Source: a virus
DNA length: 53,314 nucleotides
Virus record (IMG/VR): IMGVR_UViG_3300033148_005268
Coordinates: 1 to 53,314 of that record
Direction: 5' to 3' (one strand)
Part shown: one piece after another, positions 1 to 53,314 of the stretch
Numbering within the stretch: the first letter of the stretch is position 1
Layout: every line of letters begins with the position of its first letter
The notes under the pieces: generated by a model
The model's input: only the letters and a program-made list of their open reading frames with translations
What the model was told of the DNA's origin: nothing
Databases searched by the model: none
Made by a program: the position numbers and the translations under genes

Positions 1-114
1 AGGGTGAAGTTTCGTGTAAGTGGCGAGTTCGGCACAAAGATCATATACGGTACGAACCAGGCCAATGTCCGGGCCGGAAGCGGTGGCGATACCGCTACAA
101 CATCTGAGGTCCGG
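1..114. repeat. Circular junction repeat, left copy
   Basis: Identical to the last 114 bases of the window. Because it lies within one continuous reading frame that crosses the window ends, it is best explained as redundancy of a circular or circularly permuted assembly rather than a functional terminal repeat. Unique length is therefore 53,200 bp. Confidence 0.95.
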
Positions 115-2850
115 GCGAGCGTGAACGAGGACTTCTGGGTCACGCACGACTTAACGCTTAGCAACTGGACTTCATCGACATACTATCTGAATTTCCTGGT
201 TGAGCAGGACCGCGACGGCACGCCCAGCTATAGTGGTAACGCGAATGTCTACACGCTTGAAACCTCGCTCGCGGCAAACAATAACCATCCGATTGCCACA
301 GCTTTGCCGCAGTATGGCCCTGTGCCAAGCAGTAGTGATGATTTCAAGGTCGCTACTAGCGGGGACATCCACGGCGGCGAGGACGCCAGCGACGAGTACA
401 CGTTCACTGGTACGGACTGCATACTCAACCATCAGATTTACCATTCAATCAGCGGCAAGAGCGTTGATTTGTTTTGTATGCAGGGCGATGAACACTCACG
501 GGATACATCGAACCTAAAAAAGTATCGTCGAGCCAGTAAGCGACGACGCGGGTACAACTGCGATGCCCGTTATTACCAGGAGCAGATTCTGTCGAAGCTG
601 CCCATAATGCGCTGGCTCTCGGACCACGACCACGCAGGCGGCAATAATTGCCATAAGTGCGGATCAAGTAATTATCCAAGCGTTAATTACTTGCCGGTGT
701 ACAATGCTACTGATGGAGCACGGGAATGCACGCCATTTCCTGACTTTACAATCCCGGATGACATTCAGCAATACGGCACTGGCGGGGCGGCTACGTATGT
801 GCAAGACGATAATCCGCCGGAGTTTTCCATCTCTTACACGGTCACGTCCGGGGACCCTGGCGATGACGATAACCCGACTGGTATCAATGCTGGTGTGAGC
901 GTAACCTGGGACAGCGGAGCGAGCAGTGGCACAGCGGTTGCCATTGACGACGCAAACAACAGGATGATCATAGAGTTCTCATCTGGCAGCTATCCAGCAG
1001 ACGGCGATGTCATAGTTGGCCCGACTTGGCAGGTTACGCAAAGCGGTAGCATCTCAATTCCAACTTGGAGCGTCTATGGCATTCACCCAGGCATGGTCTT
1101 TCATAGGCTTGCGGTCGTGAATTTTTCGTCTGGCAGCAATGAGCCAACGATTGGTGAAAAGATAACAGACACCACGGCGGGTGGCACGGCGATCTTGCGT
1201 GGGGTGGAGGTTACAACAGGCTCATGGGGCGCGAATAACGCGGGTGGGTGGTTCTGGGTAGAAAGCAAGACCGGTACATTCACATCAGGCAATCCGATTT
1301 CTGGCTCAATAACTGGCTCAATCGCAAATGTCGGCACAAGCGGGCACATAGCTGCTAGTCGTGGGCTTGTGACGAGCGTGTCAGACACGAAAATATATCA
1401 AGATGCCGGTAGCTTTTTGACGGGCCATAAGTGGTATCGCGTGCAGCGATTTGCACTATTCTACACCCAGACATTTGGCAATGCTTTGTTTGTCGTAATG
1501 GATGTCCGAACAAAGCGTGACCCAAATAGAACGCCCTGGGTAGATAAGCTGGACGGCACGGTCTTTGGGCCGCTTCAGGATAGCGCATATAAGGATACCG
1601 TTACAACTACAAGCGGTTGTACCACAACGAGCATCGTCTATACCGGCGATGACCCGGATATTGTGAAATGGGACGGAGTGTATGTGTCGTCGGTTTCCGG
1701 GCTTCAGTATTCGCTTGTTGAAGCGTTGGACACCACGACAAAGACAATCACGCTTTCCTGGGCGCTTGGTGCGGCGCCGGCGTCATCCGTGACAGTAGAA
1801 TTTTATGAGACCGGCGCAAGCGACCACGGCGGCGAATGGTCAGGTGGCACATGGGACACCAGCGGTTTTACTAATGAGCAAGCTGATGCGGCAAACATCA
1901 ACGCTGGCCATATCCAGCGGACGCTTGCTGAGCGAGCTATTAGAGACGCCACAGAAGATTGGCGCGTTGTCTGTGCTGAGACGCCACTGCATCATGGCGA
2001 TGCAGGAAATCAGGATAAGTGGAACGACTGTGACGGAAACTGCACATGGGTTAAGGCGAACCAGACGGCCGATTGGACGCAAGACGGCTCAAGCGATTAC
2101 TGGTATTACAATAATGCAACGCCATTCGGATCTGATCCGCCTGGCGGACTAACTCGTTCAGTGGACGGCCTCGCCGATATGATCCAAGAATATGTCGAAT
2201 GGGACACGGACGCGGCGACAACGCTTGGAACCGATTTGCGGAAATGGACCTGGAACTCATCAACGAAATACGTTTGGGTCTACGCTCCGAACGGCAACCC
2301 GGCAGGGCAGCTTGGCTCATCTCCTGGTAGCAACGAACACGACACGGCAGAATATATCAACATCTACTATCCGGAGTTCTGGAAGCGGGCTTGCACGCGA
2401 AAATACATCATAGAAAAATACGGGGGGTTTAATAGCTTCTGGTTTGGGTCAGATCACCATGTTTTCTTTGAAGATGATGCATCCCATGCTGATGACGGCT
2501 GGCCCTGCCTTGGGGCCTCGCCTCTGCACTGCCACCCGAAAAAATCCCATCAGTCAAAGGCGCAGTTTCTTGTTGACGGTGATACCGTCATTTACGAGCG
2601 CGGGGACGGCGAGGTCGGCGGCTCAACTCCTGTTATGGGCGCAGATCAGATCGGCGGTTTTGCCGTGATGGACTTCCAGAACAGCGACGACAAGGTGGTG
2701 ATAACGGGCTATGAGCGTGATGGTGGCGAGATAGTTCATAGTGGTACAAAGAGTGATTGTACGATGGAGATTATATTCAACCCTATCCTCATTGACGAGG
2801 GCTTCGAGGGCGCCGGTACGGAAGAAACCTGGACGGAGACCACGACTTAG
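1..2850 (+). CDS. Tail/fibre protein with PhoD-like metallophosphatase domain, 3' part
   Basis: This is the C-terminal 949 residues of a 1363-aa protein whose first 414 codons are at 51959-53200. The frame is open across the junction. In full numbering, a calcineurin/PhoD-type metal-binding pattern is visible: SGDIHGG (D536, H538), MQGDEH (576-579), LSDHDHAGGNN (about 621-630) and FGSDHHVFF (1232-1234), with an ALFVVMDVRTKRDP stretch between, as in PhoD phosphodiesterases. A beta-rich insertion separates the middle motifs. PhoD-family enzymes cleave phosphodiesters, including teichoic acids; I infer a virion enzyme acting on a phosphodiester-containing host surface polymer. The protein ends at an amber codon inside a jellyroll domain that continues in frame in the next gene. 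The annotated GTG at base 4 is not a real start. Confidence 0.8.
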   Translation, partial: RVKFRVSGEFGTKIIYGTNQANVRAGSGGDTATTSEVRASVNEDFWVTHDLTLSNWTSSTYYLNFLVEQDRDGTPSYSGNANVYTLETSLAANNNHPIATALPQYGPVPSSSDDFKVATSGDIHGGEDASDEYTFTGTDCILNHQIYHSISGKSVDLFCMQGDEHSRDTSNLKKYRRASKRRRGYNCDARYYQEQILSKLPIMRWLSDHDHAGGNNCHKCGSSNYPSVNYLPVYNATDGARECTPFPDFTIPDDIQQYGTGGAATYVQDDNPPEFSISYTVTSGDPGDDDNPTGINAGVSVTWDSGASSGTAVAIDDANNRMIIEFSSGSYPADGDVIVGPTWQVTQSGSISIPTWSVYGIHPGMVFHRLAVVNFSSGSNEPTIGEKITDTTAGGTAILRGVEVTTGSWGANNAGGWFWVESKTGTFTSGNPISGSITGSIANVGTSGHIAASRGLVTSVSDTKIYQDAGSFLTGHKWYRVQRFALFYTQTFGNALFVVMDVRTKRDPNRTPWVDKLDGTVFGPLQDSAYKDTVTTTSGCTTTSIVYTGDDPDIVKWDGVYVSSVSGLQYSLVEALDTTTKTITLSWALGAAPASSVTVEFYETGASDHGGEWSGGTWDTSGFTNEQADAANINAGHIQRTLAERAIRDATEDWRVVCAETPLHHGDAGNQDKWNDCDGNCTWVKANQTADWTQDGSSDYWYYNNATPFGSDPPGGLTRSVDGLADMIQEYVEWDTDAATTLGTDLRKWTWNSSTKYVWVYAPNGNPAGQLGSSPGSNEHDTAEYINIYYPEFWKRACTRKYIIEKYGGFNSFWFGSDHHVFFEDDASHADDGWPCLGASPLHCHPKKSHQSKAQFLVDGDTVIYERGDGEVGGSTPVMGADQIGGFAVMDFQNSDDKVVITGYERDGGEIVHSGTKSDCTMEIIFNPILIDEGFEGAGTEETWTETTT

Positions 2851-4116
2851 ATGGCAGGGACATTAACATACGACAACACCACCCCGACGCCGCCTGAGGG
2901 CAGCCAGTGCATGATGGCGGAGGTGACTTCGGGCTCCGCGAATGCTTATATCACACGCTCGAGGGTCAATGCCAAGACTAGTTTCGTGCATCAACATCTT
3001 TACGTCGATGCTGAAGGCCTTGCAGACACAGAAGAATTCAAGACCCTTCAGGTCCTTGACTCAAGCGACAACATAGCAGCATATATCAGGATCTATGACG
3101 ACTCCGGCACGCTGAAATACGACTTCTACTGCTACGACGGGAGCCTTACGGCAAAGGTCACAGGGCAAACACTGAGCCTTCAGACTTGGTACGAGTTCGA
3201 GTACAAGTACGACATCGACGGCGAGGCCTGGGAGCTTAGGCTTGACGGAAGCTCAGTAGATAGTGGCAGCATCGGCGGCGCAACGCGCACGCCACGCAAA
3301 GTCAGCACCGGGATCATAGGATGCACGGGCTCCGGCACGACACGGGTCTATATTGATGATGTGGTGTGGCGCACGGATAATTGGCAAAGCGCTTATGTAA
3401 CTTCGGGGTCTCTTGCCCTAAGTGTAATATCCAGCCTAAGTGATACAGCTCTTGCTTCCAGCTCTGGCAGCCTATCTCTTGCGGCCCTGCTGGCACTCTC
3501 GGAAATTGGCTTGGGCTCCACGTATGGCGCTCTTGGGCTAGGAGCGATTTCTACAACCTCACAATCGTCTCTAGCAAGCGCACTATCTTCTTTAACGCTG
3601 TCTGGCATCGCGACCGAGCAGCATATAGGAGTCGCGGATTCTGCCGGCTTATTAAGCCTACAAGCGATCGCAACTATCGCGCAGGTTGGAGCGAATGTGA
3701 TCTTGGCCTCACTAGCTTTAGGTGCATCTGCAGGACAATCGCAGCTTTCAATTGCGACGGCTGTCGGCGACACCACGCTGGCTGGAGGTCTTGGGCTCTC
3801 GAACCAAGGCACAGCGCAAACTCTCGCTACTGTTTCGATGCCAGTCAGTGCGGTAATCACGGAATCCGCAATAGCACAAGCAATAGCAGATACCTCGTTG
3901 GGTGCAATTCTGACCCAGGCCCAAACAGGCTCACTAGGCGCAATAGTCGCAGCGACCTTTGCTGCTGCGGCTCAGGCAGGTCTAATAACCTCTGCCACAA
4001 AGACAGTCACTGTAGCTACGACATTCGACGTCGGCGGCGAAAGCGTGCCGGATACGCTCCTGGATGTCGATGGCAGGCTGTATAGAAGAATCAACGATAA
4101 GTTAATTCCATTATAG
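2851..4116 (+). CDS. Jellyroll plus 20-residue-repeat fibre protein
   Basis: 421 aa in the same frame as the preceding gene, separated from it only by TAG at 2848-2850; the ATG follows immediately. Residues 1-175 are most of a LamG/concanavalin-like jellyroll ending in VYIDDVVW, the same closing motif as IYLDDICV in the N-terminal domain of the upstream protein. Residues about 185-390 are roughly ten imperfect 20-residue repeats rich in Ser, Ala, Leu and Gly (pattern SGSLxLxxIxxxSQxxLAS), probably a repetitive fibre shaft. The C-terminal 30 residues (ending RINDKLIPL) are polar. A weak GGAG lies 12 nt before the ATG, so independent or coupled initiation is possible; amber readthrough would give a 1785-aa fusion. 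Confidence 0.8.
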   Translation: MAGTLTYDNTTPTPPEGSQCMMAEVTSGSANAYITRSRVNAKTSFVHQHLYVDAEGLADTEEFKTLQVLDSSDNIAAYIRIYDDSGTLKYDFYCYDGSLTAKVTGQTLSLQTWYEFEYKYDIDGEAWELRLDGSSVDSGSIGGATRTPRKVSTGIIGCTGSGTTRVYIDDVVWRTDNWQSAYVTSGSLALSVISSLSDTALASSSGSLSLAALLALSEIGLGSTYGALGLGAISTTSQSSLASALSSLTLSGIATEQHIGVADSAGLLSLQAIATIAQVGANVILASLALGASAGQSQLSIATAVGDTTLAGGLGLSNQGTAQTLATVSMPVSAVITESAIAQAIADTSLGAILTQAQTGSLGAIVAATFAAAAQAGLITSATKTVTVATTFDVGGESVPDTLLDVDGRLYRRINDKLIPL

Positions 4117-10822: not shown

Positions 10823-11308
10823 TTAATCATCTTCAACAGCCAAACCAAACGGCACACGCCCGTTAACTATAGCCTCCCAATGATCGACTACATCCGGGTG
10901 TACTGCACCGTGCTCCGTAGACCGTAATCTTCTTTTTGCTTCTTTCTGCACCCACTTCCATGTGCTTCTTGTAATAGACATAAACATATTCCGATGCTGC
11001 GGATAAAGCAAACACTCGTAGTTCAGCAGTCTAAGTGGCTTCCCATTATAACTAGAATCCCAACCATCTAAAAACCACCAGTGAACAATACTGGCCTGAA
11101 ATCCTGACAACCCGCCTTGTGGAGACCGTTCGACTGCCCAAGCTGCTGCAACAGCCGCCGCAGCAATAGCATGAACAATTGTTCCATAATCATGCTCATA
11201 ATCCTTAGTCAACTCCCTGATAAACTCCGGGAGTTCCCCAACGGTCATATTCTTTGCACGTTTGTACCACTCCTTATGAACACCATCTACCTCAGTGATC
11301 TTCTTCAT
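10823..11308 (-). CDS. Conserved phage early protein, unknown
   Basis: 161 aa, last gene of the minus-strand operon. It has a recognisable phage-type layout: MTVGELPEFIRELTKDYEHD, then the alanine-rich GTIVHAIAAAAVAAAWAVER, then SGFQASIVHWWF and a C-terminal segment rich in Trp and Arg. I recall similar proteins among tailed-phage hypotheticals, but their function is not known to me. It overlaps the 11305 gene by 4 nt (ATGA). Confidence 0.7.
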   Translation of the reverse strand: MKKITEVDGVHKEWYKRAKNMTVGELPEFIRELTKDYEHDYGTIVHAIAAAAVAAAWAVERSPQGGLSGFQASIVHWWFLDGWDSSYNGKPLRLLNYECLLYPQHRNMFMSITRSTWKWVQKEAKRRLRSTEHGAVHPDVVDHWEAIVNGRVPFGLAVEDD

Positions 11309-11670
11309 ACGCCCTCCTTTTTCAAACCGCTTATAGTAGCAATTATTTCCGGTATCGTGTGCTGTGGTAAGCCATTACCAGAACCGACACTTATAGAATC
11401 TATTACTAACTCATTAGAATCGTCGTCCGCACAAGTATCCACACAAGTTATGCAATTACTAGTAGTTCCAGTTTCATCAGCGGTTTTCACACGTTTTACA
11501 AAGTACTGCATAAAAGAGTCGGTTGGTTTGTCATAGATACGCACTTTTCTACAACCATTAGTATGACCCGTAACCGACACAACAACGTCCTTTTCCACCA
11601 CCACCCCATCGTTTACAAACGGAAAAAGACCTAATAACGGTAAACGCTTTAAAAACTGCCGCCTATTCAT
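11305..11670 (-). CDS. Small exported protein with Tat-like N-terminus
   Basis: 121 aa from the ATG at 11670, with GGAGG at ideal distance. The start NRRQFLKRLPLLGLFPFV resembles a short twin-arginine signal (RRxFLK plus hydrophobic core). The rest contains a cysteine-rich stretch (NCITCVDTC) and no known domain. If exported by Tat it would act in the periplasm. A basic N-terminus of a cytoplasmic protein is the alternative. Confidence 0.6.
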   Translation of the reverse strand: MNRRQFLKRLPLLGLFPFVNDGVVVEKDVVVSVTGHTNGCRKVRIYDKPTDSFMQYFVKRVKTADETGTTSNCITCVDTCADDDSNELVIDSISVGSGNGLPQHTIPEIIATISGLKKEGV

Positions 11671-12013
11671 TTTTATACACCTCCAAGTATACCGGCAAAC
11701 ACCTCTTTCTTGCTTTACTAAGTATATCAAAAGTACCACGACTCTTACCGTCCCACACAACTATTAAAGCATCTGCAAACTTCAACATCTCAGCATTCCT
11801 AATAAAGCCAGCAACACGACCATATGTGTTCCAGTCTGCCTGGAAGCGCGATAATTTCACACCATTTATCTTTGCCCACAACTCCCCCAAACGATCCACA
11901 CCTTTAGCTCCACCTGAAATGATTTCCGTTACATTGAATCCAGAAGCTATCACAGCTTTTTCTACAATACTATAGTCAGTAATCGTTCTGGAACCAGCTA
12001 TTATTACTCGCAT
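11663..12013 (-). CDS. SLOG-family protein, DUF2493 (YspA-like)
   Basis: 116 aa. The nucleotide-binding SLOG pattern is plain: RVIIAGSRTITD at the N-terminus, IISGGAKGVDRLGELWA, FQADWNTYGRVAGFIRN and LIVVWDGKSRGTFDIL. SLOG proteins bind nucleotides or nucleotide-derived signals; small DUF2493 proteins are common in phages and are thought to process or sense them. Its N-terminal 38 bases overlap the upstream membrane-protein gene, implying coupled translation. Confidence 0.85.
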   Translation of the reverse strand: MRVIIAGSRTITDYSIVEKAVIASGFNVTEIISGGAKGVDRLGELWAKINGVKLSRFQADWNTYGRVAGFIRNAEMLKFADALIVVWDGKSRGTFDILSKARKRCLPVYLEVYKNE

Positions 12014-12311
12014 TGCTTACCCACACACATGACCGCAAGTTATCGTCGCGTGCAGTATCATCAAGCGCCAAAAAGTGCCTATCCGCTCCTACCCAAATGG
12101 TGTTTAGATTCTCGTAATGCTTTGCAATATATTCCCGAAACTTACAACAAATCTTACAAACAATATAAATCATAAAACAAAAGCACCGCACGCAAAAGTA
12201 AAGCGCTATCAACCTAATGCCCAGCACATCTACAAAAATAATTGCCCACAAACAAACAGCGAGGCAGAACGTCAGAATAAAAATAGCAAGGCAACACAGT
12301 TCAGTTTTCAT
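11976..12311 (-). CDS. Small membrane protein
   Basis: 111 aa. Two long hydrophobic segments in residues 5-55 (IFILTFCLAVCLWAIIFVDV; FCFMIYIVCKICC) are followed by a soluble tail with GADRHFLALDDTARDD. Unusually rich in cysteine. GGAAGAGGC precedes the ATG, and the ATG overlaps the upstream stop. Function unknown; it could be a superinfection or membrane-active early protein. Confidence 0.55.
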   Translation of the reverse strand: MKTELCCLAIFILTFCLAVCLWAIIFVDVLGIRLIALYFCVRCFCFMIYIVCKICCKFREYIAKHYENLNTIWVGADRHFLALDDTARDDNLRSCVWVSNASNNSWFQNDY

Positions 12312-30366: not shown

Positions 30367-30882
30367 ATGAAGCATTATTTCATTCAAATGGTGAGCGGGC
30401 ACAAGCAAGAGATCACGAAGGCCGAGTTTGACGCGATCCTGGCGCGTATGGCGAAGGGTGATGTAACCAGGCGGGCGTTACAGAAGCGGCGCGGGCTTGT
30501 CTACACGGACCGGATTGAGGGTTATTTTGTGGTTGAGGAGAGCGAGTGGCTGAAGATGCTGGAGACGTGCCCGTCAGTTATTACGCTGCCGATTGAGTAC
30601 GGTGAGCCGGTCGGGCTACCGATGGAGGAGCCGGAGGTTGAAGTCCAGGAGCCCCCTGTTAAGTCGGAGGACGATAACGGTCTTAGCGACGAGGAGTTAT
30701 CCGCTCCAATGTCTTCTGAGGAGTTTGAGAAGATCGTCATCGCCTCTGGCCTTACAAAAGCCGAGTTTGCCGGCAAGATTGGTGTCAGCCCTGCGCTGGT
30801 TGGGCTTATGATTTCGGGCCGCAACCGTGTCACCGAGCAGACTGCCGCGAAGGTGCGTACAGTGTTCAAGGAGCTGGTATAA
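30367..30882 (+). CDS. Protein with C-terminal XRE-type HTH
   Basis: 171 aa, AAAGGAGCTTAGGTGC before ATG. Residues 1-75 are an alpha-beta domain (FDAILARMAKGDVTRRALQK). An acidic linker follows (residues 80-115). Residues 118-171 are a canonical HTH: FEKIVIASGLTKAEFAGKIG, VSPALVGLMISGRNRV, AAKVRTVF. A DNA-binding regulator embedded between terminase and portal genes may control the late operon or assist packaging. Confidence 0.75.
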   Translation: MKHYFIQMVSGHKQEITKAEFDAILARMAKGDVTRRALQKRRGLVYTDRIEGYFVVEESEWLKMLETCPSVITLPIEYGEPVGLPMEEPEVEVQEPPVKSEDDNGLSDEELSAPMSSEEFEKIVIASGLTKAEFAGKIGVSPALVGLMISGRNRVTEQTAAKVRTVFKELV

Positions 30883-30885
30883 CGC

Positions 30886-32997
30886 ATGAGAGACGACTCA
30901 AAGCTGGGGGCGCCGTTCTCTAAGCTGGCAAAAGAGGCGAAGCTGCGTGAGGCGAAGAAGCGGTTACGGTATGCTGTTTCGGCTGATTCCGAGTTTCAGC
31001 GTTTGGCCGAGCAGGACTTTCGGTTTCATGCTGGTCATCAATGGAAACCGGAAGAAAAGCGCGTGCTTGAGGTGATCGAGAAGCGCCCGGCGCTTACGTT
31101 CAACTTGATCAAGCCTGCGGTGGACCTCGTGCTTGGTGTGGTTGAGAACAACCAGGTTGCGATCACGCCCGAGCCGACCGAAAAGAACGACCAGTTTCTA
31201 GCCGATATTCTTGCTGATGCGGATAACAAGCTTGTTAACCTTGGTAGCCTATCAGACAAGGAAGATGACGCCTTCGAGAACGCCTGTATCTGCGGCAGGG
31301 GATTTGTTGCGATTGATATTGCGCCGGATCCTGAGCGATTAGGCGAGATTATCATTAACGAGGTCAGCATTCCGCCGCACGAGATCAAGCTGGACCCGGC
31401 CGGCACGCAGGACGATCTTTCCGACCACAGATACATCTTTTGGGATAAGTGGCTTACATTTGAGGACTTCAAGATTCAGTACCCGAAGCACGCGAAGCGT
31501 CTTGACGAGATCGTATCTGCCGACCCGGGTGAGGAGATGCTTTACGCGAAGGCGGCCTCAACGGATGTTTGGGACCTACTGGACGAGGATTCGGACGATA
31601 GCGACTACGATATGCCGCTTGATTTTGCGTACTACGATAAGAGCCGTGGGCGCGTGCACGTGTGTCATATGGAGTACTGGGAGGTGTACGACCGGTATTA
31701 TGGCTTTAATCCGATGACCGGCCAGACCGAGGAGTTTGACCCGCGGGGGTTGAAGTTACTCCAGGAGCGCATACCGGACTTTGAGTACGTTACGATCAAG
31801 GACAAGAAAGTTAAGTGGCTTCAGTTTATTGGTGACGAGGTGCTGTTTGACGGTGATGCTCCGGTGCCGTACCGGGGGTTTTCTATCGTGCCGTGCTTTG
31901 CGTATAAGGACAAGTCCGGCAGGCACGTTAGTCACTTTGGTGTAGTACGGCAGATGATTGACCCGCAAAAGGAGGTTAACAAGCGTTGGTCGCAGACACT
32001 GAACCTGCTGATGAAGCAGGGGCAGGGTGGCTACTTTGCCGAGCTGGACGCTCCGGTTGACCAGGACCAGTGGGAGTCTTCTATTACGTCGCCGGGCGAG
32101 ACCACCTGGGTGAGTAAGGGCGCGATTTCGCAGGTAAAATTTAAAGAGAAGGGTATCCCACAATTCCCCGACGCTGCAATGCGCATGCAGGAGTTTGCAG
32201 CGGACGTTATGAAGAAGATTAGCGGGATCAACCCGGACTTGCTCGGCATGGACCGTGGCAGGCAGGAGCCAGGTGTTGTGATCCGGCTACGGCAGCAACA
32301 GGGCATGGTACTGCTTGCCAAGCTGTTCAAGAGCTATAAGCGCATGAAAAAGCAGATCGCCGAGCGGCGTTTTGCGGTTATCATGGCGTACATGCCAGAC
32401 TCTCAGTTCAAGCGTATCCTGGGCGACTCAGATCGGTACATGTTCCGTGGCGGGCTGGTGGTGGACAAAGAGAACGGCTTTATCGCCCCGATCCGCAACC
32501 TGCGCGACATGCCGTATAACATCACGGCACGCGAGGCGCCTGGGAGCATGACGAAGTCCATGTTTGAGCTGAGCATATTCCTCGAGATGATGTCTAAGGG
32601 CTTTCCGGTTGATCCTGAGACGATCATTTCCAAGCTGGATCTTTCCGCTTCCGAGAAGGCCAAGTGGAAGGATTACATCAAGCGTCAGCAGGATACCCAG
32701 GCTCAGATGGCCCAGCAGGAGCAGGCCGCAAAGCTGATGGAGGCCCAGGCCAAGACGCAGCAGGGGCAGGCTAAGCTAGCCCTTGATGCCAAGAAGCAGG
32801 ACGACGATAAAAAGTTGAAGCTGTTGGAATTACAGGAAAAAGAAAAAGAGGTGTTACGGCAGTACGCCTTAGATGTTGCAAGCTTGGACATTGAAGAGCG
32901 TAAGCTCTTATTTGACCTTGTGGCGAAGCTTAAGCAGGAACACAAGGAGTTCCTCCCCCCAGCGAGGTATGCTGGGAATTTCGTGACGCCGACGTAA
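30886..32997 (+). CDS. Portal protein, P22-like
   Basis: 703 aa. N-terminal FRFHAGHQWKPEEKRVLE, RPALTFNLIKPAVDLVLG and NNQVAITPEP, then IDPQKEVNKRWSQTLNLLMK and SGINPDLLGMDRGRQEPGVV, all typical of P22-type portals. The C-terminal 130 residues are a Gln/Ala/Lys-rich helical barrel region (QAKTQQGQAKLALDAKKQDD). Forms the dodecameric portal at the capsid vertex and docks terminase and connector. Confidence 0.9.
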   Translation: MRDDSKLGAPFSKLAKEAKLREAKKRLRYAVSADSEFQRLAEQDFRFHAGHQWKPEEKRVLEVIEKRPALTFNLIKPAVDLVLGVVENNQVAITPEPTEKNDQFLADILADADNKLVNLGSLSDKEDDAFENACICGRGFVAIDIAPDPERLGEIIINEVSIPPHEIKLDPAGTQDDLSDHRYIFWDKWLTFEDFKIQYPKHAKRLDEIVSADPGEEMLYAKAASTDVWDLLDEDSDDSDYDMPLDFAYYDKSRGRVHVCHMEYWEVYDRYYGFNPMTGQTEEFDPRGLKLLQERIPDFEYVTIKDKKVKWLQFIGDEVLFDGDAPVPYRGFSIVPCFAYKDKSGRHVSHFGVVRQMIDPQKEVNKRWSQTLNLLMKQGQGGYFAELDAPVDQDQWESSITSPGETTWVSKGAISQVKFKEKGIPQFPDAAMRMQEFAADVMKKISGINPDLLGMDRGRQEPGVVIRLRQQQGMVLLAKLFKSYKRMKKQIAERRFAVIMAYMPDSQFKRILGDSDRYMFRGGLVVDKENGFIAPIRNLRDMPYNITAREAPGSMTKSMFELSIFLEMMSKGFPVDPETIISKLDLSASEKAKWKDYIKRQQDTQAQMAQQEQAAKLMEAQAKTQQGQAKLALDAKKQDDDKKLKLLELQEKEKEVLRQYALDVASLDIEERKLLFDLVAKLKQEHKEFLPPARYAGNFVTPT

Positions 32998-33021: not shown

Positions 33022-34143
33022 ATGGGTAACAACGACAGTGCAATGGGCAATGTAGGCGGAGAAGGAGAATTTGAGAAGGTAATGGACGGGGAGCTTGAGC
33101 CTCCTGCGGATGACAGTGATCAATCTGCTGCGGGCGAAGGAGATGGATCGCCGCCGCCGGGCGAGCAGGATGATGCTGGTAAGTCTGAGGGTGGCGAGGG
33201 CGACGACTCGGATGCTGTTGACATTAAGGCCCTTCAGGAGCGCATTGACGCCCTCGAGCGCGAGAGCGCAGGACGGTTGAAGGGTCTCCGGGCGGAGCGC
33301 GAGCAGCGTAAGGCGCTTGAGGCGAAGGTTGCCACGGTCGTGGATCTTGTAAGCAAGTCAAAGTCTGCGCGACAGCAACAGGCGAGCGGAGAAAGCGGTA
33401 CTGACGATGAGACAGTTAGCGCGGGCGGGAAGAAGATCCCGGTATCGTTTGACGATGACGGCAACCCGTACATTGACCCGGAGGACCTGATTGGTCTTAC
33501 AAAGAAGCAGGTCAGCTCGGTTGAGAAGCAGCTTGCGAGCAAGGTTGAGCAGGTCGAGCAAACCCAGCAGGTCTTGGCTGCTCAAACGGAGAACGCAAAA
33601 GCTGTTGATAGTATTCTTAGCCGTGATCCTGCGTTTCCTGCGGCTTATGCGAGGCTGAATCAGGCGTTTCGTATGCTTGATGAGGGCATGGACAAGATTG
33701 TAGCGCGGACGGACATTGACCCGTCAACGCTTACGATCGAGCAATGCCTGGAGCTGATGGAGTCCGACGCGGGCCTGATGAAGCAGTTTCAGTCGCAGTT
33801 CCCGGGGGTTGATGTTGACACTGTTGTTGAAGCCATGGCCCTTTCTCCCGCTGGCAGGGTGAATACGCGCAAGTTGTCTAAGGCCCTATCTGCCCTTAAA
33901 TCCAAGGATGACGAAAGCGCCACTGGCGACACCGGAGGTAAGCAAAAGAAGGGAATAGGGAAAACTCTTAAGGCGATTACGGCAGCGCGTAATCTTGCTG
34001 GCGCAACGAACCAGAAGGGCTCGCGTGAGACGAGTCTTGACGATATTGCGAGCCTGACAACGGAAGATTTTCTAGCGTTGTCGGATGCTCAGGTGAAAGA
34101 GATTGAGAGGGCGCTCCTCCAGGAAGAGATGGCGGAGGTCTGA
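33022..34143 (+). CDS. Scaffolding protein candidate
   Basis: 373 aa between portal and capsid. The first 65 residues are acidic and disordered; residues 66-110 and 150-200 are coiled coil (ALQERIDALERESAGRLKGL; KKQVSSVEKQLASKVEQVEQ); the end is basic-acidic (KQKKGIGKTLKAITAARNLA). This composition and position are those of podoviral scaffolds. It has no protease motif. Confidence 0.8.
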   Translation: MGNNDSAMGNVGGEGEFEKVMDGELEPPADDSDQSAAGEGDGSPPPGEQDDAGKSEGGEGDDSDAVDIKALQERIDALERESAGRLKGLRAEREQRKALEAKVATVVDLVSKSKSARQQQASGESGTDDETVSAGGKKIPVSFDDDGNPYIDPEDLIGLTKKQVSSVEKQLASKVEQVEQTQQVLAAQTENAKAVDSILSRDPAFPAAYARLNQAFRMLDEGMDKIVARTDIDPSTLTIEQCLELMESDAGLMKQFQSQFPGVDVDTVVEAMALSPAGRVNTRKLSKALSALKSKDDESATGDTGGKQKKGIGKTLKAITAARNLAGATNQKGSRETSLDDIASLTTEDFLALSDAQVKEIERALLQEEMAEV

Positions 34144-34161
34144 CAATAGGAGGCGATAACT

Positions 34162-35235
34162 ATGGCAGTAACAGAGTTCGGTACGAATGATGCCCAGAGC
34201 GTAAGCATTTGGTCTAAGATGACCATGCGCGAGGCGCTGAAGGCGACCAAGTTCCGCAAGTACATGGGTACGAGTAAGAAAGCGATTATCCAGAGGCTTA
34301 CGGAGCTTGAGAAGAACGCAGGCGACACTATCAAGTACGACCTGCTTATGCAGATGACAAGCGCTGGTGTATCCGGCGATGAGCGCCTGAAGGGCAACGA
34401 GGAAGCCCTGGTCTATGAGCAGGATGCGGTGGTGATTAACCAGCTCCGTAACGCGCACGCCTTCAGGCAGATGACCCAGCAAAGGACGGTCCATAACCTG
34501 CGCATTGATGCCAAGGAGAACCTGGCTGACTGGTTTGCCGGCAAGCTGGATTCGTATATGTTCCGGTATCTTTGTGGTGATACGTCGATTAACCACGGCC
34601 AGGCGGGCGTGGCCCCCGACTCGGATCATTACGTTGTAACCGGGGACGTGTCTCACACTGGCACGATCGCAACAGACGAGGCAAGCCTCGGCTCAAACGA
34701 CCAGGTTGATCTGATGGACATCGACTACGCCAAGGAAAAGGCTGGCACGATTTCCCCGATGATCAGACCATGCCTGATTGATGGTGACGAGTTCTACGTT
34801 GCCTGTTTCCACGACTATGCTCTTACGGACATCAAGATTTCTGCAAACACGAACGCTACGATCAAGTGGGCGGAGATTCAGCAGTACGCGAACGTGCGGG
34901 GCTTGCAGAACCCGATCTTTAAGGGCACGAACGGTGTTTACAATAACGTCATTATCGACAACTCAACCCGTATCTATTCCCCGACCAGTAATGTGCGCCG
35001 GAACTTGTTTCTTGGTGCTCAGGCCGGGGTGTTTGCGATCGGTAACGCATATAAGCCGATTGTGCAGAAGCGCGTTGGTAAGGACAACCTGATGTCCTGG
35101 TATGAGGAAGTGGACGATTACGGCAACGAGACCGGTGTTGCTGTTGGCATGGTCTTCGGAATCAAAGCTTGCCGGTTCAATTCCAAGAACCACGGCTGCA
35201 TGGTGATCACCAGCTACGCTGCCTCGCACGGCTAA
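34162..35235 (+). CDS. Major capsid protein, N4-gp56/DUF4043 family
   Basis: 357 aa, strong AGGAGGCGATAACT site. HK97-fold family pattern: SVSIWSKMTMREALKATKFR, KNAGDTIKYDLLMQMTSAGV, LNxRIDAKENLADWFAGKLD-type helix (here LRIDAKENLADWFAGKLDSY), NPIFKGTNGVYNNVIIDNST and NLFLGAQAGVFAIGN. Most abundant virion protein; followed by a terminator, consistent with gene-dosage control. Confidence 0.9.
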   Translation: MAVTEFGTNDAQSVSIWSKMTMREALKATKFRKYMGTSKKAIIQRLTELEKNAGDTIKYDLLMQMTSAGVSGDERLKGNEEALVYEQDAVVINQLRNAHAFRQMTQQRTVHNLRIDAKENLADWFAGKLDSYMFRYLCGDTSINHGQAGVAPDSDHYVVTGDVSHTGTIATDEASLGSNDQVDLMDIDYAKEKAGTISPMIRPCLIDGDEFYVACFHDYALTDIKISANTNATIKWAEIQQYANVRGLQNPIFKGTNGVYNNVIIDNSTRIYSPTSNVRRNLFLGAQAGVFAIGNAYKPIVQKRVGKDNLMSWYEEVDDYGNETGVAVGMVFGIKACRFNSKNHGCMVITSYAASHG

Positions 35236-35245
35236 TGGGTAGGCT

Positions 35246-35285
35246 AGCGCCGGGATCGTAGCCCCGGCGCTTATTATTAACTTTT
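35246..35285 (+). terminator. Terminator after the capsid gene
   Basis: AGCGCCGGG (35246-35254) pairs with CCCGGCGCT (35263-35271), 9 bp, followed by TATTATTAACTTTT. A second, shorter hairpin TTCGGG-ATCGTAA-CCCGAA follows just before the next ribosome site; both loops contain ATCGTA. Confidence 0.8.
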
Positions 35286-35318
35286 ATTCGGGATCGTAAC
35301 CCGAAAGGAGGAACTAAG

Positions 35319-35948
35319 ATGGCAACATTTACGACAACTGGAGGCACAACCTACGACCTGACCGATACCTCGGTAAACCCGGACGCAGTACCGGTTGCAA
35401 CGCCTCGGGAGGGCGGGTTCGTTCTCAGGAACCGGATCAACTTTTCCAGCGTGACCGCGCCGACTGCGACCAATCGGGTGGCGAACGTGCTTCGGCTTCT
35501 GAAGGTGCCGAAGCGCACGGTTATCCGCGAGCTGCGCTTTCACGCAATTCGTGGCCAGACCGCGCCTACGCATGGCTTTTCTAGCGCATCCTCGCTTGGC
35601 TCAAGTGCTGGGAGTGGCGCAACGCTGAACGTTGGCGGGGTTTGGTACATGGACGCCTCGCAGACGGCGTCTTCTGCTGCAACGGATACGGATGCGCTGG
35701 CTGATCACGTGATCACGAAAAAGACTGGCGTGGCGGCTGGCATGCCGACCCTGTCAGCTTCGACCCCGGTTCTGGACTATACGTCCCAATCGGACGGTAA
35801 CGCCCCGACTCTGCCGTTCACGTTCCCGTATGGCGGCTGGATCACGATGGGAATCGAGGATAGTACCGGGTCCTCGGCGTCTTCTGTGTCAGCGAAGATG
35901 TCTGGCGTGCTCGAAGTTCGGGCAGTGTGTGACTACATCCCTGAATAG
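35319..35948 (+). CDS. Capsid-associated (decoration-type) protein
   Basis: 209 aa, AAAGGAGG upstream, right after the capsid terminator. Beta-rich: VLRLLKVPKRTVIRELRFHA, FTFPYGGWITMGIEDS, ending GVLEVRAVCDYIPE. The gene at 37042 has a similar ending (GVIEVCALIF) and similar core organisation, so the two may be distant paralogues forming head decoration or minor capsid subunits. Confidence 0.65.
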   Translation: MATFTTTGGTTYDLTDTSVNPDAVPVATPREGGFVLRNRINFSSVTAPTATNRVANVLRLLKVPKRTVIRELRFHAIRGQTAPTHGFSSASSLGSSAGSGATLNVGGVWYMDASQTASSAATDTDALADHVITKKTGVAAGMPTLSASTPVLDYTSQSDGNAPTLPFTFPYGGWITMGIEDSTGSSASSVSAKMSGVLEVRAVCDYIPE

Positions 35949-51958: not shown

Positions 51959-53314
51959 ATGACGGTCTCGCGCGAGATCCTAAACGCTGTTAATTTCCAG
52001 CCGTCTGCGGACTGGACGATCCCGGATGCGCTGAATAATCTTGTCTATGAGTCATTCGATTCTGATGACTACGATGATTGCAAGAAAGGCAGCATCACGT
52101 TTTCGCAGCAAGGATCACCATCTCCAAACACTGCATCTGATCACACCTACCATGGTGATTATGTTTGCCTGTGCAATAATTCTGCTGCGGAGTTCGTAAA
52201 GTGGGACTTCACGGCTAGGACCCCCCGATGCTACAAGGTCCGGTTGCGTTTCTACCTGAAGATTCCGGCGGCAGCAAACTGGCCAAATAGACGCATCTGC
52301 TCCTTGCAGTACTACTACGCTGGCAACAAAAATGCCTTTGAGATCGCAGGAACAACTACAGCAGGCGAGCTGAAATTCAAGTGGGCAACAGGCGCGAGCA
52401 CTTTTGAGAACACCAAGTATACTATTTCATACGATACTTGGTATAGATGTGAACTTGTGATCTATAACGACACCTCATCAGCAAGCGGCACGGTGTATTT
52501 TTATACTTCTACTGGGTCAACCGAGTTGCTCACAGGGTCTGGTTATAGTGCAACGAACCTAAACGCTTCTTTGAGCAACGTTACATACGCTGAATATTTA
52601 GGAATATTGAAGTTAGGGTTGCTTGACACTGGCGATTCAGACGATCAAATTTACCTTGACGACATCTGTGTCCGCGATGCTACGAACGACTACGACGCCA
52701 CAATAGGCGATTGGAACACAAATGCGGGTACGCATATGACTGACCGCATAGGTGTTGGGTCTGGCACGACAGAGGCCTTTGCGACGACGAGTGCTTCACA
52801 AGACCTGGAGTTTGTGTTCGAAAAGCCGAGCATCACAGACCCACTTGCTGTGCGGCTTTGGGTTTACGGGCAGGCGAGCACGGCAAACTCAAACCGTTGT
52901 GTCAACCTCTGCCGTTGGGTGTCTGGGGCAAGTTACGGTTGGGGTAAGGTCCAGTTGCGTGACAGTTACGAGTACCACCACGTGCTCTGGGAGCATGAGC
53001 CAGGAACGACAGAGGACGTTGCCTGGACGCAAGCAAAGCTAGAAACGTTGACTGCCGGAGTGCAGTCATCAGGATCAAACGAAAGCGAGAACCCAGGCGG
53101 CTATATTGCTGAGTGCTATGCGGAGGTTATAAAGGGCAATAGCGATGATGGGCACATGACTCACGGGCCTATCGTGTGGGCGCTTTCTACGACGCAAGCC
53201 AGGGTGAAGTTTCGTGTAAGTGGCGAGTTCGGCACAAAGATCATATACGGTACGAACCAGGCCAATGTCCGGGCCGGAAGCGGTGGCGATACCGCTACAA
53301 CATCTGAGGTCCGG
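51959..53314 (+). CDS. Tail/fibre protein with PhoD-like domain, 5' part
   Basis: First 414 codons of the 1363-aa protein that continues at base 1. ATG 51959 has AGGAGAGG 5-9 nt upstream. Residues about 28-240 are a LamG-like jellyroll opening with VYESFDSDDYDD and closing with DDQIYLDDICVRDA; residues about 245-500 form a second beta-rich domain (TIGDWNTNAGTHMTDRIGVG) leading into the phosphatase domain. The N-terminal jellyroll is paralogous to the one that spans the amber codon near 2850. Bases 53201-53314 duplicate bases 1-114. Confidence 0.85.
   Translation, partial: MTVSREILNAVNFQPSADWTIPDALNNLVYESFDSDDYDDCKKGSITFSQQGSPSPNTASDHTYHGDYVCLCNNSAAEFVKWDFTARTPRCYKVRLRFYLKIPAAANWPNRRICSLQYYYAGNKNAFEIAGTTTAGELKFKWATGASTFENTKYTISYDTWYRCELVIYNDTSSASGTVYFYTSTGSTELLTGSGYSATNLNASLSNVTYAEYLGILKLGLLDTGDSDDQIYLDDICVRDATNDYDATIGDWNTNAGTHMTDRIGVGSGTTEAFATTSASQDLEFVFEKPSITDPLAVRLWVYGQASTANSNRCVNLCRWVSGASYGWGKVQLRDSYEYHHVLWEHEPGTTEDVAWTQAKLETLTAGVQSSGSNESENPGGYIAECYAEVIKGNSDDGHMTHGPIVWALSTTQARVKFRVSGEFGTKIIYGTNQANVRAGSGGDTATTSEVR
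53201..53314. repeat. Circular junction repeat, right copy
   Basis: Exact copy of bases 1-114; the reading frame from 51959 enters it in the same phase as the frame at base 1, confirming circular continuity. Confidence 0.95.

What the first reader, a model, noticed from the sequence alone, without database searches (positions are those of the whole stretch)
2800..3400. In-frame amber codon splits a conserved jellyroll domain
The 1363-aa tail protein ends TAG at 2848 and the next gene starts ATG at 2851 in the same frame. The segment before TAG (IDEGFEGAGTEETWTET) corresponds to the start of the LamG-like domain (YESFDSDDYDD in the paralogous N-terminal domain), while the rest, including VYIDDVVW, is after the TAG. 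Only the joined sequence has the full 185-200-residue domain length. Readthrough would give a 1785-aa enzyme-fibre fusion; TAG is a normal stop elsewhere in the genome.
Basis: partly seen in the sequence, partly recalled or inferred. Interest (0 to 1): 0.82.

Follow-up and report, generated by a model that had tools for sequence, protein, structure and literature searches.

The report
Phage jellyroll domain split between genes
In two otherwise different uncultured phages, one compact sugar-binding-type protein domain is cut by a stop codon, so that its first two strands end one gene and the rest starts the next; both halves look conserved, which suggests that the two virion proteins rebuild the domain together rather than that the stop is an accident.

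Summary
A profile built only from uninterrupted relatives matches the joined sequence over positions 2-207 of 209 (137 bits). The 1363-aa protein's tail matches the start of the profile (24 bits; at most 9.5 in shuffles), and the next gene matches 24-207. AlphaFold2 folds the joined stretch as a ConA/LamG-like jellyroll (pLDDT 90.9), with TAG in a turn between two strands.

The stop is not a one-off or an error. A second phage (IMGVR_UViG_3300033141_001941), whose matching enzyme is only about 30% identical, has the same tail and TAG-ATG at the same place. There a further complete jellyroll stands between the ATG and the rest of the split domain. The tail's 18 core codons changed almost only synonymously (Ka/Ks about 0.03).

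Readthrough is not excluded but has no specific support: 'same frame' is automatic at zero spacing, TAG ends 14 of 38 listed genes, nothing beyond TAG-ATG is shared, and no amber-suppressor tRNA was found.

I favour two proteins made by stop-start coupling, the enzyme's tail supplying the first two strands of the fibre's jellyroll in trans (0.42). Rivals: fission scar (0.30), readthrough (0.20).

The parts
51959..53200 (+). First 414 codons of the 1363-aa enzyme/tail protein (continues at 1 after closing the 114-bp terminal repeat)
1..2850 (+). Rest of the 1363-aa protein, a PhoD/purple-acid-phosphatase-like metallophosphatase by motifs seen by eye and through its relative (below Pfam cut-off), ending in TAG
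2788..2847 (+). C-terminal tail LIDEGFEGAGTEETWTETTT = first two strands of the jellyroll; Ka/Ks 0.03 over its 18 core codons against the relative
2848..2853 (+). TAG-ATG junction, zero spacing, shared with L002:5332-5337; falls in a 3-residue turn between strands 19-23 and 27-33 of the joined model
2851..4116 (+). Downstream 421-aa fibre-like protein
2857..3387 (+). Remaining 13 strands of the same jellyroll (profile positions 24-207)
2834..2837 (+). GGAG region, the best Shine-Dalgarno-like match before the downstream ATG; about 13 nt lie between it and the ATG, unusually far

Best explanation
A jellyroll that once sat in one chain has been cut in the turn after its second strand. The enzyme gene now ends with strands 1-2 and the fibre gene begins, with zero spacing, with strands 3-15. 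Shown: the split, its sharing by two phages, and the conservation of both halves. Inferred: (1) ribosomes that end at TAG restart on the adjacent ATG, so the two proteins are made together; (2) the enzyme's C-terminal two-strand tail docks into the fibre's incomplete jellyroll, completing it in trans and joining enzyme and fibre without a covalent bond, in the manner of strand complementation.
For: Profile and AlphaFold2 place the cut in a turn, with each half retaining its own share of the domain. The relative has the same tail-TAG-ATG although the enzyme bodies are only about 30% identical. Tail LID..TET: 6 synonymous against 1 non-synonymous difference (Ka/Ks 0.03; P 7e-4 against neutrality), while the 9 codons just before it have Ka 0.64. 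The tail has therefore probably been kept as protein after the stop arose; with Ks 0.82 it is not merely conserved DNA. In the relative, a full domain starting MSLIHEQ follows the TAG; the same start opens that phage's upstream gene, and clear sequence similarity begins at the ATG, as expected if the ATG is a real start. The Shine-Dalgarno match is poorly spaced, which fits coupling. Short overlaps or very short distances favour termination-reinitiation, and short overlaps are enriched among subunits of heteromeric complexes (PMC10666635).
Against: No direct evidence of docking. Only two phages carry the split, and the tail is 20 codons, so the selection test is small. If the two stops arose independently, the tail's conservation could predate them. 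The one attempt to model the relative's version failed (pLDDT 33), so whether the tail still fits there is unknown. The published distance work found overlaps of 4 and 1 nt most common, not zero spacing.
Confidence: 0.42

Rival explanations
1. Fission scar. A stop arose in a fused enzyme-fibre gene (or enzyme and fibre genes recombined); the fibre restarts at ATG and tolerates the loss of two strands; the enzyme's tail is a leftover without function.
For: The downstream part alone still scores 106.7 of 137 bits. Uninterrupted relatives begin a gene with this domain (MARIIDENFEG, MTRFWDEKFEG), so a join at the 5' end of a fibre gene is easy to imagine. The window has a RecT-like annealing gene and is mosaic with the relative.
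Against: The tail is kept in two phages at Ka/Ks 0.03, while the codons just before it have diverged, and it still fits the intact-domain profile well (24.4 and 28.0 bits).
Confidence: 0.3
2. Amber readthrough. Some ribosomes decode TAG and make an enzyme-fibre fusion with an intact jellyroll, beside the short enzyme and a restarted fibre.
For: The joined sequence, with TAG as one residue, gives a full-length, well-folding domain. TAG, not TAA or TGA, is in both phages. The tail is conserved as protein.
Against: The sequence after TAGATG is not shared between the two phages, and no RNA structure beyond chance follows the stop (z +0.96 and -0.62). TAG is a common ordinary stop. No suppressor tRNA found in either contig. 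In the relative, readthrough would place a whole domain inside a hairpin of the other.
Confidence: 0.2
3. Global recoding of TAG (genetic code 15 or similar) in late genes, so that the 'stop' is simply a sense codon.
For: Such recoding is known in gut phages (PMC9523058, abstract shown).
Against: 14 of 38 listed genes end in TAG, most of them followed within a few codons by another stop or by a new gene; no suppressor tRNA.
Confidence: 0.03

Closest known systems
Translational coupling by termination-reinitiation at overlapping or adjacent stop-start codons (PMC10666635)
   Same: Stop and start adjacent, weakly placed Shine-Dalgarno, two proteins that plausibly act together
   Different: Here the junction lies inside one folded domain, not between two complete proteins; zero spacing instead of the commonest 4- or 1-nt overlaps
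Stop-codon readthrough extensions of virion proteins (phage Q-beta A1; luteovirus coat readthrough domain; from general knowledge)
   Same: A stop followed by a long in-frame extension in a structural gene
   Different: No conserved readthrough context or structure, an ATG directly after the stop, and the cut is inside a domain
Donor-strand complementation (chaperone-usher pili; from general knowledge)
   Same: The proposal that a strand of one protein completes the fold of its neighbour
   Different: Here a two-strand N-terminal piece at the C-terminus of an enzyme, created by gene fission; docking not shown
ConA-like/LamG jellyroll domains of phage tail proteins
   Same: Fold, length, conserved DExFEGxGxEExW start
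   Different: The domain is distributed over two ORFs

Membership tests
ConA-like/LamG jellyroll domain | Two-sheet jellyroll of about 200 residues over the joined sequence | tested here: met
   AlphaFold2 pLDDT 90.9, pTM 0.89, 15 strands, no helix; Foldseek matches to Cip1 and PL7 lyases and to phage ConA/LamG proteins. No Pfam match by sequence
ConA-like/LamG jellyroll domain | Sequence kinship with uninterrupted phage domains | tested here: met
   Profile from 11 intact rows: 137 bits, positions 2-207 of 209
Termination-reinitiation gene pair | Overlap or very short distance between stop and start | tested here: met
   Distance zero in both phages
Termination-reinitiation gene pair | Translation of the second gene depends on the first | not testable with these tools
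   Needs a two-reporter test
Programmed stop-codon readthrough | Conserved nucleotide context or structure 3' of the stop | tested here: not met
   Only ATG is shared after TAG; fold z-scores +0.96 and -0.62
Programmed stop-codon readthrough | Fusion product present | not testable with these tools
   Needs virion proteomics
TAG-recoded phage (code 15) | TAG rare as a gene end, in-frame TAGs in late genes, suppressor tRNA | tested here: not met
   14 of 38 listed genes end in TAG; no CUA-anticodon tRNA
Split domain completed in trans | Both pieces kept under selection after the split | tested here: inconclusive
   Ka/Ks 0.03 for the 18 core codons of the tail (0.12 for all 20) and 0.10 for the last 120 codons of the domain; synonymous sites saturated in the first 48 codons after the split; two phages only
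Split domain completed in trans | The two proteins bind through the tail | not testable with these tools
   Only single chains can be modelled here; the relative's joined model failed
PhoD/purple acid phosphatase-like enzyme (upstream protein) | Family profile above its curated cut-off | tested here: not met
   No Pfam match for the window protein; the relative matches Pur_ac_phosph_N and PhoD_N below cut-off. Metallophosphatase-like motifs were seen by eye only

The most novel reading that the evidence does not exclude
A virion enzyme and a tail fibre are held together by one jellyroll whose strands are encoded by two adjacent genes, split at a stop-start codon pair so that the halves are made side by side and assemble in trans; in the relative the fibre side has gained a whole domain at the split point without losing the tail.
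Probability: 0.38. Interest if true: 0.72.

Novelty: new variant of a known kind. Interest (0 to 1): 0.5.

Why it matters
If the two halves assemble in trans, this is a natural case in which a gene boundary inside a domain becomes a way to attach modules to each other in a phage tail, with co-translation ensuring that the halves meet. It would also be a ready-made split jellyroll. If readthrough is the answer, it would be an amber readthrough in a DNA phage tail gene. Either outcome can be tested with one proteomics run or one pull-down.

Tried and rejected
(1) Sequencing error or recent nonsense mutation: rejected as the main reading, because an independent contig with a much diverged enzyme has the same TAG-ATG. 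(2) Recoded genetic code: rejected on stop usage. (3) Conserved DNA as a recombination site rather than conserved protein: disfavoured, Ks 0.82 in the tail. (4) More split relatives: viral-contig scans with the upstream C-terminal region, the downstream domain, alignments and degenerate patterns, including one aimed at the split itself, gave only the one relative; the other hits of the split pattern are unrelated. Genome contigs gave none; the phage collection gave no match to the first 20 kb of the window by DNA, nor to the upstream C-terminal region or the downstream domain by tblastn. (5) Modelling the relative's joined version: failed, pLDDT 33 with four sequences. (6) PDB by sequence: nothing useful for either protein. 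(7) Papers on phage tail-gene readthrough or on split fibre domains: none to the point.

Full report
What is there. The window is a virus record of 53,314 bp with a 114-bp direct terminal repeat, hence most likely a complete 53.2-kb genome. Closing the repeat gives a 1363-aa protein (51959-53200 plus 1-2850) that ends in TAG at 2848-2850. The next ORF starts with ATG at 2851 and runs to 4116 (421 aa). The rest of the genome has a terminase-like protein, portal, major head protein and a RecT-like annealing protein. The upstream protein reads like a metallophosphatase of the PhoD/purple acid phosphatase kind. For the window protein this rests on motifs seen by eye; its relative has matches below the Pfam cut-offs.

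Is the domain really split? Uninterrupted relatives of the domain were collected from viral contigs with degenerate patterns on its start; all hits that are clear relatives, other than the one contig discussed next, run through the site without a stop. A profile from eleven intact rows, without the window and without the relative's split domain, matches the joined window sequence at 137.0 bits over positions 2-207 of 209. It matches the downstream ORF at 106.7 bits over 24-207. The last 60 residues of the upstream protein score 24.4 bits, where 5000 shuffles reach 9.5 at most. AlphaFold2 on the joined stretch with TAG read as Q gave pLDDT 90.9 and pTM 0.89: an all-beta fold of 15 strands. Strands at residues 3-7 and 19-23 lie before the TAG (residue 24) and the next strand at 27-33 lies after it, so the cut is in a turn. 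Foldseek finds ConA-like proteins in the PDB and phage ConA/LamG proteins in BFVD.

What is not evidence. That the two ORFs are in the same frame is automatic when ATG follows the stop directly, and three other junctions of the window also have the next gene in frame. Zero-spaced stop-ATG junctions are not rare in such phages: two of the intact fibre genes end TAA-ATG and TAG-ATG.

The relative. IMGVR_UViG_3300033141_001941 (83,238 bp, held as L002 and G001) shares only a handful of genes with the window. Its 1522-aa enzyme is about 30% identical in the body, yet ends LIDEGFEGTGTEETWTETVN-TAG-ATG. Its 864-aa downstream protein starts with a complete jellyroll (MSLIHEQYFESG..., profile 2-207) and only then continues with the cut domain (profile 38-208, about 80% identical to the window's). 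Leaving that extra domain aside, WTETVN and SLRIYHDATSPTPPEG line up with the window's WTETTT*MAGTLTYDNTTPTPPEG. The extra domain is a paralogue of the N-terminal domain of that phage's own enzyme, and the clear similarity begins at the ATG. This points to the ATG being a true start already when the domain was added, and to TAG-ATG being ancestral to both phages.

Selection. Between the two phages the 18 codons LID..TET differ by 6 synonymous and 1 non-synonymous change (Ka/Ks 0.03; P 7e-4 against neutral expectation). All 20 tail codons give Ka/Ks 0.12 (P 0.02). The nine codons just before have Ka 0.64. The last 120 codons of the downstream part of the domain have Ka/Ks 0.10; in the first 48 codons after the split synonymous sites are saturated, but synonymous changes still exceed neutral expectation. 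If the stop is ancestral, the tail has been kept as protein for the whole time in which it could no longer be part of the fibre chain by ordinary translation. The sample is two sequences and 20 codons, so this is an indication, not proof.

Mechanism. Three readings remain. Trans completion (0.42) explains the conservation of the tail, the conserved stop-start pair and the addition of a domain at the ATG in the relative. Scar (0.30) needs the tail's conservation to be luck or inherited from before independent stops. Readthrough (0.20) explains the conserved tail but has no conserved 3' context, no RNA structure and no suppressor tRNA, and in the relative it would place a domain inside a hairpin. 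Published work shows that termination-reinitiation needs overlaps or very short distances and that short overlaps are enriched among subunits of complexes (PMC10666635).

Limits. Only one relative was found, the metagenome collection could not be scanned, complexes could not be modelled, and the one model of the relative's version failed. The names fibre and enzyme are by architecture and weak similarity.

Noticed in passing
window 19607-19681 (-): A tRNA gene by Rfam (52.8 bits) and ARAGORN, but the anticodon arm reads ATAGGTC-GCAA-GACCTAT: either a 4-base anticodon in an 8-nt loop or a 7-bp stem closed by a GCAA tetraloop, so it may be a tRNA-like decoy or frameshift-type tRNA.
   Followed up: partly
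window 10823-11760 (-): Two ORFs (161 and 151 aa) joined by GGAGGGCGTATGA correspond to a single 315-aa ORF in the relative (G001 33957-34904), owing to a 4-nt difference in an A/G homopolymer (AAAAAGGAGGG against AAAAAAAGGGGGGG): gene fission/fusion or a slippery site.
   Followed up: partly
window 10823-12311 against G001 33957-35843: Proteins about 81-93% identical between two phages that otherwise share little, suggesting recent exchange or a common host.
   Followed up: no
window 30367-32997: A 171-aa ORF followed in frame (TAA CGC ATG) by the 703-aa portal protein; another in-frame stop-separated pair.
   Followed up: no
window and G001 ends: Both contigs carry direct terminal repeats of exactly 114 bp; identical length in unrelated assemblies may come from the assembler or trimming.
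   Followed up: no
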